Assembly: GCA_021809755.1 (NCBI GenBank) | Contig: JAJZJZ010000008.1 | Location: 1-40,175, forward strand | From: Thermoplasmata archaeon | GTDB lineage: Archaea > Thermoplasmatota > Thermoplasmata > Thermoplasmatales > Thermoplasmataceae | DNA: 40,175 nt | Direction of reading: 5' to 3' | In this document: one piece after another, positions 33,401 to 35,823 of the stretch | Position numbering within the stretch: the first letter of the stretch is position 1 | Layout: each line of letters begins with the position of its first letter | Notes under the pieces: generated by a model | Database searches by the model: none | What the model was told of the DNA's origin: nothing | Seen by the model: only the letters and a program-made list of their open reading frames with translations | Program-made: the position numbers and the translations under genes

Positions 33401-33532
33401 ACCGTGTTATGTAATACCTTACTTTAAATTTTGTATAATGTGATATTTAACTACCCTGCTTTGCACGTTAAGCCTTATCATATTTTCTGCGCTATGTTAA
33501 TTTGTTTAGATTGTTTCCAATATCTGACATTC

Positions 33533-33555
33533 CCTCCATCCCAAGGGATTGGAGG
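33533..33555 (-). repeat. Right-end hairpin of the tnpB element (likely omegaRNA 3' stem)
   Basis: The arms CCTCCA and TGGAGG enclose an inner stem CCC/GGG with a two-base loop and a single bulge. The hairpin starts 8 nt after the tnpB stop, where the guide RNA (omegaRNA) scaffold of TnpB elements normally ends. The guide would then correspond to sequence below about 33530. Confidence 0.65.
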
Positions 33556-33563
33556 TTCCTGAT

Positions 33564-34721
33564 TCATTGAGTGACAACTCGTAGACCTCCTTTTGAGAGT
33601 TCCGCTGCTGTAGCACTTTCCACAGGCGTAAATTCGGAAATGCCCTTCCCTACCTTTATCAATCCGATTTTACGGATATTTATTGCTGCATTCAGATCGC
33701 GGTCCATTGCAAGACCACACACATTGCAGTGGTATGTGCGATCCGACAGTCTCAGATCGTGTTTTATGTTTCCACATTTCGAGCAGATCTTCGATGATGG
33801 TTTATATCTGCCTATCTTAATGAGATCGGCATCTCTCCATTCCATCTTGTATGTGAGCAGCTGCTTGAACTGGTACCATCCCTGATCTGTTATGCTCTTT
33901 GCAAGATGGTGATTTCTCTGCATTCCCTGTATATTCAGGTCTTCAATAATCACAGTACCATAATGCTTGGCTATCGCCGTCGATACCTTATGATTGAAGT
34001 CTGTTCTTGCATCTTTGATCTTCTGATGTACTTTCTGCACTTTCACTATCTGCTTCTTTCTGTTTTTAGATCCTTTCTTCTTCCTTGATAACCTCCGCTG
34101 TTCTCTTTTTAATTTTTTCTCTGTATTCCTCAATGCATTCAACGGTTCAACCTGCAATCTATCCGATGTGGTGAGGAATGCCTTGATACCCATGTCAATT
34201 CCGATTGTGCCTTTACCTTTAGGCAATTCTTCTTCTATTTCATAGGGGATTGATGCATAGTACCGATCAACATCTCTCGTTATGACAACCTGCTTTGCTG
34301 TCTCAGGAATGGGTGATTTGTCCCTGAATTTTATCTCTTTTTTAAACTTCGGAATATATATGCCCTCTTCATCAAATGAAAAGTGCTGTGGCACAATGAA
34401 ATACTGGTTATCCTTCTTTGATCTGAAGTTTGGATAATCAGTATTGCGCTTGAAGAATGACTTGAACGATGTGTCGAGTTTCATCAAAACCTGCTGAAGT
34501 GATTGTGAATTTACTTCATTAAGCCACTCATATTCGCTCTTCAGATTCTTCAGATCATTTATCATATGAAAACCAGATATGGAGTTTCCACCGTCATGGT
34601 ATTCATGGCTCTTCGTCTCAAGAAAGTGATTCCAGATGAATCTGGTTGAACCAAAATGCTTCTCGATCAGCACTTTCTGATCTTCATCCGGATATATTCT
34701 AATCTTAAGAGTTTTAAGCAT
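33564..34721 (-). CDS. tnpB: TnpB RNA-guided nuclease (IS200/IS605 OrfB)
   Basis: The 385-aa protein belongs to the TnpB family, ancestors of Cas12. The N-terminal wedge/REC part starts KTLKIRIYPDEDQ. The RuvC core has all three catalytic acids: Asp176 in GIDMGIKAF, Glu260 in VIIEDLNIQGM, and Asp342 in DRDLNAAINI. The zinc finger Cys313/316/332/335 is complete. Full length and intact residues suggest an active enzyme that nicks or cleaves DNA using an omegaRNA made from the 3' end of its own element. No neighbouring tnpA is present. Confidence 0.95.
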   Translation of the reverse strand: MLKTLKIRIYPDEDQKVLIEKHFGSTRFIWNHFLETKSHEYHDGGNSISGFHMINDLKNLKSEYEWLNEVNSQSLQQVLMKLDTSFKSFFKRNTDYPNFRSKKDNQYFIVPQHFSFDEEGIYIPKFKKEIKFRDKSPIPETAKQVVITRDVDRYYASIPYEIEEELPKGKGTIGIDMGIKAFLTTSDRLQVEPLNALRNTEKKLKREQRRLSRKKKGSKNRKKQIVKVQKVHQKIKDARTDFNHKVSTAIAKHYGTVIIEDLNIQGMQRNHHLAKSITDQGWYQFKQLLTYKMEWRDADLIKIGRYKPSSKICSKCGNIKHDLRLSDRTYHCNVCGLAMDRDLNAAINIRKIGLIKVGKGISEFTPVESATAAELSKGGLRVVTQ

Positions 34722-34776
34722 CTATATGAAATCATATAGTTACATACACATCTTTCATTGAGGCGAGTCCGTGTAT

Positions 34777-34797
34777 CTCCGTGCCAAGGCATCGGAG
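34777..34797 (-). repeat. Left-end hairpin of the tnpB element
   Basis: The arms CTCCG and CGGAG enclose an inner TGCC/GGCA stem with a two-base loop and one bulged base. It has the same geometry as the right-end hairpin and lies 55 bp upstream of the tnpB start. It differs from the right end at four positions that form two compensated base pairs. Confidence 0.7.
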
Positions 34798-34896
34798 TTT
34801 TAAAGCTTCCTTCCAACTCGTAACAACATTATAAATATAAAAAGATATATAAAGACATAATTGAAGGACAAAGTCTTTTAATCTAAATAAAAATGT

Positions 34897-35823
34897 GTGA
34901 ATGTGCTCGTAAAGGAAATGGATGGAATGCCAGATATGGAATGTGAGGCAACAATTGCAAGCGAATTAAAAGTCTTCAGGAGCCTATCTGATCTTATGGA
35001 TCATGTGCCTTCGTTTCTGTATCTTGATAAGAATGGCATCTCCATAAGTTATTTTGTTGATAAAAAAGAAGTAAAATCAATCAGGAATCTTGAGATATTC
35101 AGCAGGGAATTCCAGTGCAGAACCTCTGGGGATTTATACTATATTGTAAATAAAGAAGTGGGAATGCCATCCATTGAGAATTACGAAAAACTGCTTGCTA
35201 TACCATCAGTGGTACTGAATTATAAATATCTTCATGATGGGATGCATCACATTATATTCAATTTCTCAAGGAAAGATCTGGAAAGATTTTCAGCACTGAT
35301 ACTGGAACTGAAGGAGCGAATGCCAGGATTCAGTATAGCATACCTGGGTGAAAATAGGGGAATTTCCAGAACACTGGATATTATGAAGAAAGTTCCTGGT
35401 CTCTACTACTCCAGTATTAAATTAGAATACGATCCAAAAAAGCTTGGAGGGATAATGGAGTATAAATGGATCAGAAAGATCAGATATAATACGCCACATA
35501 ACGTAACAGACGCATTTTATAAATTTGAAGATAAAATCCCTAAGATTGATGGCATCAATATGATATCGGAAAAGCACAATCTTGCGCAGTTGAAAACCCA
35601 CGGTGATACTATGCTTGATACTATCGATTATCTGGAACCGGTAATAATGGAGTGCCAAAAAAACGATGATGGAGTTATGTATTTTGATTCCATAGTAATG
35701 ACATCATTTTACACCAATTACCTTAAGAACGTTATGGCAGATGTGAAAACCTTGGGTGTGGGAAATGTTGAGGTAAGAAAAGCCGGTCCCCTTGGAGAAT
35801 TTCTTGGGTACTCCTTTGATTAA
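34897..35823 (+). CDS. Unknown 308-aa protein, distant paralogue of the 2820-3737 product
   Basis: A soluble alpha/beta protein with no recognised family. Residues about 100-200 align with the other unknown protein in this window: IPSV-x2-N, an IIFNFSRKDLERFS segment, FSIAYLGENRGI, and YKWIRKIRY. Such repeats resemble sensor parts of archaeal bacterio-opsin-activator-like regulators, but no DNA-binding domain is visible. GTG 34897 is the longest start; ATG 34918 is possible, and promoter spacing does not clearly decide. It begins about 75 bp beyond the tnpB element and converges on the ZPR1-like gene with an 8-bp gap. Confidence 0.65.
   Translation: MNVLVKEMDGMPDMECEATIASELKVFRSLSDLMDHVPSFLYLDKNGISISYFVDKKEVKSIRNLEIFSREFQCRTSGDLYYIVNKEVGMPSIENYEKLLAIPSVVLNYKYLHDGMHHIIFNFSRKDLERFSALILELKERMPGFSIAYLGENRGISRTLDIMKKVPGLYYSSIKLEYDPKKLGGIMEYKWIRKIRYNTPHNVTDAFYKFEDKIPKIDGINMISEKHNLAQLKTHGDTMLDTIDYLEPVIMECQKNDDGVMYFDSIVMTSFYTNYLKNVMADVKTLGVGNVEVRKAGPLGEFLGYSFD

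What the first reader, a model, noticed from the sequence alone, without database searches (positions are those of the whole stretch)
33533..34822. Both ends of the tnpB element carry the same two-part module with compensatory base changes
Seen directly on the minus strand: TACGAGTTG occurs outside the left hairpin (34822-34814) and inside the 3' end of tnpB (33583-33575), followed 16 and 19 nt later by a stem-loop of identical geometry (TT loop, bulged A, 5-bp and 4-bp stems). The 21-nt hairpin cores differ at four positions, and these form two fully compensated pairs (G-C to A-T and G-C to C-G). Such covariation points to selection on folded RNA or ssDNA. IS605 ends are known to have hairpins recognised by TnpA, and the RE hairpin is part of omegaRNA; an LE that copies an omegaRNA-like end, including an upstream 9-mer, is less usual. 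It could mean that the LE region is a remnant of a tandem element, is bound by TnpB for autoregulation, or yields a second guide-like RNA.
Basis: partly seen in the sequence, partly recalled or inferred. Interest (0 to 1): 0.75.

Follow-up and report, generated by a model that had tools for sequence, protein, structure and literature searches.

The report
Matched transposase hairpins flanking archaeal tnpB
The two look-alike hairpins at the ends of this archaeal tnpB gene are best read as the recognition ends of a small single-strand transposon, each carrying the 4-letter guide that matches its own cut site; the shared 9-letter word is probably chance, but the left end belongs to a conserved, unnamed structured end class found in dozens of copies in related archaea.

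Summary
In detail: coordinates, the 9-mer TACGAGTTG at both ends, and two 21-nt hairpin cores differing at four positions that form two compensated pairs. The element (33524-34830, minus strand) is a tnpB-only IS200/IS605 (IS1341-type) transposon whose hairpins are IPL and IPR. Each end obeys the IS608 guide/cleavage rule: left guide AAAA with cleavage site TTAT, right guide GAAC with TCAG. The fourth-base rule holds in 93 of 105 left ends (shuffled mean 42, maximum 59) and 77 of 92 right ends (shuffled mean 48, maximum 59) of relatives. The 9-mer is in both ends only here among 46 two-ended elements (chance about 0.02). The left end is nevertheless notable. It belongs to a conserved class with a long helix enclosing the guide and hairpin, found in 39 of 117 genomes of the order, up to at least 59 copies per genome. 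This class precedes several tnpB lineages and omegaRNA-like MITEs, but never a tnpA in the loci checked. A tandem remnant is unlikely. Autoregulation or a second guide RNA from the left end has no positive support, but RNA roles were not tested.

The parts
33524..34830 (-). whole element, IS1341-type (tnpB-only) IS200/IS605 element, 1307 nt
   Evidence: guide/cleavage code at both ends; orthologous Ta1207-epimerase junction without tnpB in two genomes of the same genus; boundary to the base is inferred because intergenic flanks have diverged
34831..34835 (-). left cleavage site CL, TTTAT (TTAT core); target sequence kept in the left flank; by analogy also the TnpB TAM
   Evidence: 29 nt before GL, as in most type-A left ends; IS608 rule from PMC5934647; TAM role inferred, not tested
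34752..34835 (-). type-A left-end module matched by covariance model R1
   Evidence: 75.5 bits, E 1.5e-13; this sequence was one of the 39 used to build the model, so it matches by construction
34814..34822 (-). 9-mer TACGAGTTG, left copy; consensus of the class here is TTAGGAGTTTG
   Evidence: chance about 0.02 and not shared by relatives
34806..34815 (-). 5' strand of the helix that encloses guide and hairpin (partly decayed here: 6 of 10 pairs)
   Evidence: 88% of cells paired across 39 copies; change on both sides at cols 25/76 in 9
34758..34767 (-). 3' strand of the enclosing helix
34798..34801 (-). left guide GL, AAAA
   Evidence: position directly 5' of IPL as in IS608; complementary rule tested
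34777..34797 (-). left hairpin IPL, extrahelical A at 34792, TT loop
   Evidence: aligned in A1
33564..34721 (-). tnpB, 385 aa, with HTH, OrfB_IS605 and TNB zinc-finger domains; D/E/D motifs present
   Evidence: Pfam; ISDra2 TnpB structures E 1.1e-55
33524..33655 (-). probable omegaRNA scaffold (3' part of tnpB plus right end); 5' limit approximate
   Evidence: MITE copies keep the corresponding segment without the ORF; sub-threshold RAGATH-18 match at 33556-33626; inference
33575..33583 (-). 9-mer TACGAGTTG, right copy, inside the conserved tnpB 3' end (GLRVxT)
33555..33558 (-). right guide GR, GAAC
33534..33554 (-). right hairpin IPR, extrahelical A, TT loop
33524..33527 (-). right cleavage site CR, TCAG; bases below 33524 would be the omegaRNA guide
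   Evidence: GR4-CR4 complementarity 77/92 in relatives

Best explanation
The two modules are the left and right ends of a single-strand (peel-and-paste) transposon of the IS200/IS605 family. On the tnpB strand each end folds into an imperfect hairpin with an extrahelical A that a Y1 (HUH) transposase TnpA would bind. The four bases just 5' of each hairpin (AAAA left, GAAC right) pair with that end's own cleavage site (TTAT left, TCAG right) and so set the cuts. Both hairpins look alike because one TnpA must read both. The element has no tnpA, so it would be moved by a TnpA acting in trans. The left end belongs to a Thermoplasmatales class in which a second helix encloses the guide and hairpin. 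The shared 9-mer is most likely coincidence. Shown: hairpins, guide/cleavage complementarity across relatives, covarying enclosing helix, absence of tnpA in cis. Inferred: TnpA binding, excision, trans mobilisation.
For: IS608 rule (GL AAAG/CL TTAC, GR GAAT/CR TCAA, guide at the 5' foot of each hairpin): PMC5934647. Right ends: fourth guide base complementary to fourth cleavage base in 77/92 (shuffled mean 47.8, max 59), C with G 17/21 and G with C 58/65. Left ends: 93/105 (mean 41.9, max 59); in type B alone 40/45 (mean 16.8, max 28): G with TTAC 19/19, T with TTAA 16/19, A with TTAT 5/5. Relatives with tnpA in cis share the plan: a TTAN cleavage site, GAAAN guide and hairpin. Junction without the element in two same-genus genomes. 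Own left and right hairpins more alike than cross pairs. In G058 the hairpin core of type-A tnpB ends is identical to that of the genome's only tnpA element. Identical near-terminal palindromes and trans mobilisation are described for archaeal IS605 elements, PATEs and other IS605 elements (PMC3119063; PMC7290912).
Against: No Y1 transposase gene in the host assembly (86% complete), and G059 has many type-A ends with only a tnpA fragment, so the mobilising enzyme is not identified. Within type A alone the guide test is weak (53/60; shuffles reach 55) because nearly all are AAAA/TTAT; the support comes from type B and from both pooled. Shuffles ignore relatedness of copies. Own-genome hairpin match holds for G057 and G058 but not for most others.
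Confidence: 0.9

Rival explanations
1. The left end is a functional RNA: a structured 5' leader of the tnpB/omegaRNA transcript, with a TATA box (TTTAT|A) formed where the target site meets the element, controlling expression or serving as an extra part of the guide RNA. This could hold in addition to the transposase reading.
For: Enclosing helix with covariation and near-invariant internal loops; present also in omegaRNA-like MITEs without ORF; TTTATA at most junctions.
Against: The conserved hairpin and guide are explained by TnpA recognition; TTAT is explained by the guide; no transcript data; no Rfam match at the left end.
Confidence: 0.2
2. The left end is a degenerate copy of the right end (tandem or remnant element).
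For: Shared 9-mer and 17/21 identical hairpin core.
Against: No right-end motif (CAGGAA, GGATGTCA) at the left end; the left end is a member of its own class in 39/117 genomes; its guide fits a left cleavage site; 9-mer not shared by relatives.
Confidence: 0.03
3. The left hairpin is bound by TnpB-omegaRNA for autoregulation, or gives a second guide-like RNA.
For: Only the resemblance of the two hairpins.
Against: The same left-end class precedes a very different tnpB (25-35% identity) and ORF-less elements, so it does not track one TnpB. Left ends in relatives with the same right-end type can be of the other class.
Confidence: 0.05

Closest known systems
IS608 (Helicobacter pylori), IS200/IS605 family
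   Same: imperfect hairpins near both ends on one strand, tetranucleotide guide at the 5' foot, cleavage sites TTAN (left) and TCAN (right), matching bases covary; insertion 3' of the left cleavage site
   Different: no tnpA here; in IS608 a second left-end hairpin lies 3' of IPL (PMC5934647), whereas here a second helix encloses IPL and its guide
IS1341-type (tnpB-only) archaeal elements and PATEs (Haloquadratum, PMC3119063)
   Same: tnpB without tnpA, near-terminal palindromes alike at both ends, short transposase-free derivatives more numerous than full elements, and an unidentified mobilising TnpA
   Different: left-end class and host order; many of the short forms here keep an omegaRNA-like body
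ISDra2 TnpB / OMEGA
   Same: TnpB homologous over 360 residues with D/E/D motifs; right end expected to be the 3' part of omegaRNA
   Different: omegaRNA and nuclease activity not shown for this element

Membership tests
IS200/IS605 transposon ends | subterminal imperfect palindromes at both ends on one strand, with an extrahelical base | tested here: met
IS200/IS605 transposon ends | guide tetranucleotide at hairpin foot complementary to own cleavage site (IS608 rule) | tested here: met
   window AAAA/TTAT and GAAC/TCAG; relatives 93/105 and 77/92
IS200/IS605 transposon ends | insertion 3' of CL without target duplication | tested here: inconclusive
   element absent at the orthologous junction in L122 and L123, but flanks too diverged to fix the base
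IS200/IS605 transposon ends | ends bound and cleaved by a Y1 TnpA | not testable with these tools
   needs a biochemical assay
Autonomous IS605 element | Y1 TnpA gene in the element | tested here: not met
   none in the element or in the 86%-complete genome; therefore filed as the tnpB-only IS1341 type
IS1341-type element | tnpB (OrfB_IS605 + TNB) as only gene between IS605-type ends | tested here: met
TnpB RNA-guided nuclease (OMEGA) | RuvC D/E/D residues and zinc finger | tested here: met
   homologous to PDB TnpB sequences, E 1.1e-55 for ISDra2; motifs read in the translation
TnpB RNA-guided nuclease (OMEGA) | omegaRNA overlapping the 3' end of tnpB and the right end | tested here: inconclusive
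   sub-threshold RAGATH-18 hit; conserved MITE bodies
   alignment A1 against right ends

The most novel reading that the evidence does not exclude
The type-A left end is a dual-use module: as ssDNA a TnpA site, and as RNA a structured 5' leader driven by a TATA box completed by the target (TTTAT|A), so that any insertion switches on its own tnpB or omegaRNA; tnpA-free elements of several TnpB lineages share it and are spread by one TnpA in trans.
Probability: 0.18. Interest if true: 0.65.

Novelty: new variant of a known kind. Interest (0 to 1): 0.42.

Why it matters
It turns a puzzling two-ended resemblance into a testable, largely known mechanism and predicts exact cut sites and the TnpB TAM. 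It also describes a left-end structural class without an Rfam entry that links several TnpB lineages and many ORF-less omegaRNA-like elements in Thermoplasmatales, in genomes where the mobilising transposase is often not evident. That is the same open question raised for Haloquadratum IS605 elements and PATEs (PMC3119063).

Tried and rejected
RNAalifold on A1 gave no consensus structure; the structure was instead named from one copy (L118) and counted, which favours it on the paired percentage. Single-sequence folds were mixed: the window left end z -1.4, L118 z -4.6, L099 z -0.6. A pairing GGAGTTT/AAAACTCC inside the left end was rejected because it fails in G051 copies. I first thought the R1 matches at tnpA loci L139, L128 and L145 showed tnpA with a type-A left end; reading them showed these are the other left-end class or a third form, and no tnpA lies near any type-A left end examined. 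The 20-nt inverted match 33520-33539 / 34918-34937 was rejected: the second arm is native Ta1207 coding sequence, largely kept in relatives without the element. Some automatic extractions were wrong: L029, L030 and L090 took coding sequence, and two guides (L187, L190) slipped and were set to AAAA.

Full report
1. Observation. All stated coordinates and sequences are right. The two hairpin cores are 17/21 identical and the four differences form two compensated pairs. This compensation follows automatically once both ends form stems; what carries information is that the ends resemble each other.

2. The gene. The minus-strand ORF 34721-33564 is TnpB: HTH_OrfB_IS605, OrfB_IS605 and TNB domains, and homologous over residues 3-363 to ISDra2 TnpB structures, E 1.1e-55. 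The catalytic motifs IGIDMGIK, IIEDLN and DRDLNAA and the CxxC...CxxC finger are present. There is no tnpA in the element, and none was found in the host assembly, which is 86% complete.

3. It is an insertion. The neighbouring Ta1207 and epimerase genes lie side by side in two other genomes of the genus, without tnpB. The intergenic flanks have diverged too far to read the junction base by base, but the left flank aligns to about 34843 in L123 and the right flank from about 33502.

4. Ends of relatives. Ends of about 90 related loci were compared. Right ends share GAAnCAGGAAn-hairpin-GGATGTCA or a close variant. Left ends fall into at least two classes. Type B has TTAN, a short linker, AGC(AA or Gn)GAAAn, hairpin, GATGAA, GC. 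It is found on the tnpA-bearing elements and on most tnpB relatives at 64-70% identity. Type A includes the window: TTTAT, then a consensus GTTAGGAGTTTGAGGGAAGCAGTAAAA, hairpin, GATACACGGACTTCCCTCAA.

5. The guide code. In IS608 the four bases at the 5' foot of each hairpin pair with the cleavage site (GL AAAG/CL TTAC; GR GAAT/CR TCAA; PMC5934647). The window gives AAAA/TTAT and GAAC/TCAG. Across relatives the fourth guide base is complementary to the fourth cleavage base in 77 of 92 right ends (shuffled mean 47.8, maximum 59) and 93 of 105 left ends (mean 41.9, maximum 59). Type B alone gives 40 of 45 (mean 16.8, maximum 28); type A alone is uninformative (53 of 60, maximum 55) because it hardly varies. 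Variation includes G with TTAC, T with TTAA, A with TTAT, C with TCAG and G with TCAC. A further right-end type, CAAG with TGAC, also fits by eye. Related copies are not independent, but the matching changes recur at both ends and in several lineages. This is the strongest evidence that the hairpins are transposase sites.

6. The enclosing helix. In type A a 10-bp helix encloses the guide and hairpin: 88% of its cells pair, and column pair 25/76 is AU in 16, GC in 9 and GU in 3. The whole structure has 81.4% paired cells, against 37-56% when slid by 1-3 columns. In type B a shorter helix occupies the same place: AA on the 5' side goes with TT on the 3' side, a single A with T, followed by GC/GC. 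So the guide sits in an internal loop. For IS608, ISDra2 and IS605 the second left-end hairpin is described as lying 3' of IPL (PMC5934647). In the window the type-A helix is partly decayed (6 of 10 pairs); a predicted alternative joins CGAGT at 34820 with ACTCG downstream.

7. Distribution. Model R1 finds type A in 30 of 77 family genomes and 39 of 117 genomes of the order, in three families. Copy numbers reach at least 59 (G058), 47 (G060), 38 (G059) and 20 (G057). From memory, the size of G057 equals that of the Thermoplasma acidophilum genome. The window's genome has one copy and the three other genomes of its genus have none. Type A heads full tnpB genes of the window, G058, G057, G035 and G050 groups. 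It also heads a distant tnpB (25-35% identity: L092, L114, L219), short ORF-less elements with the omegaRNA-like 3' part of tnpB, and longer ORF-less elements whose last 96 nt match the 3' end of the distant tnpB element. No tnpA was found next to any type-A left end examined. In G058 the hairpin core of type-A copies is identical to that of the genome's only tnpA element; G057 is close; most others are not. Trans mobilisation is therefore plausible but not shown.

8. The 9-mer. The type-A consensus is TTAGGAGTTTG. The right-end consensus in this tnpB branch is CTACGAGTTGCC, part of the conserved C-terminal coding sequence. Only the window has the exact 9-mer at both ends among 46 elements. 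Chance is about 0.02, and own matches are no longer than cross matches. One relative, L024, shares TAAGAGTT between its ends; this is noted but is a single case.

9. Conclusion. Ordinary in kind: left and right ends of a tnpB-only IS200/IS605 element obeying the IS608 code. Less ordinary: a conserved left-end class without tnpA, shared between TnpB lineages and ORF-less elements. Whether it also acts as RNA is open. The claim that this class is undescribed rests on a limited search (no Rfam match; a few open-access papers), so it may be known in papers or databases not held here.

Noticed in passing
L095, L099, L102, L106, L224, L210 downstream of the type-A left end: ORF-less elements of about 400 nt with a conserved, structured-looking body; the last 96 nt equal the 3' end of a distant tnpB element, but about 200 nt upstream of that are shared only among the ORF-less copies. 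No Rfam hit for the copies scanned (L102, L106). Could be a long omegaRNA or another RNA.
   Followed up: partly
L186-L195 (G057), L197-L211 (G058-G060): Many short type-A elements retain an omegaRNA-like body and right end without tnpB, each with a different flank that would be a guide: a dispersed set of possible guide RNAs served by few TnpBs.
   Followed up: partly
L058 (G058:C20:120885-124033): Hybrid left end: type-B 5' half (TTAC..GCAAGAAAG) joined to the type-A 3' half (GATACACGGACTTCC), suggesting recombination at the hairpin.
   Followed up: no
L067:841-922 (G058): A type-A left end starts directly at the TCAC end of another element's right end, i.e. tandem or nested insertion.
   Followed up: no
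L024 (G068): Broken tnpB relative whose left and right ends share TAAGAGTT, the position homologous to the window's 9-mer, with A in place of C at both ends; single case.
   Followed up: no
window 33520-33539 and 34918-34937: 20-nt inverted match (90%) between the right end with its flank and the 5' part of the Ta1207 gene; the latter is native coding sequence largely kept in relatives without the element, so probably coincidence.
   Followed up: yes
L092:1144-1227 next to 1255-1567: A type-A element sits immediately beside the archaeal RNase P RNA gene.
   Followed up: no
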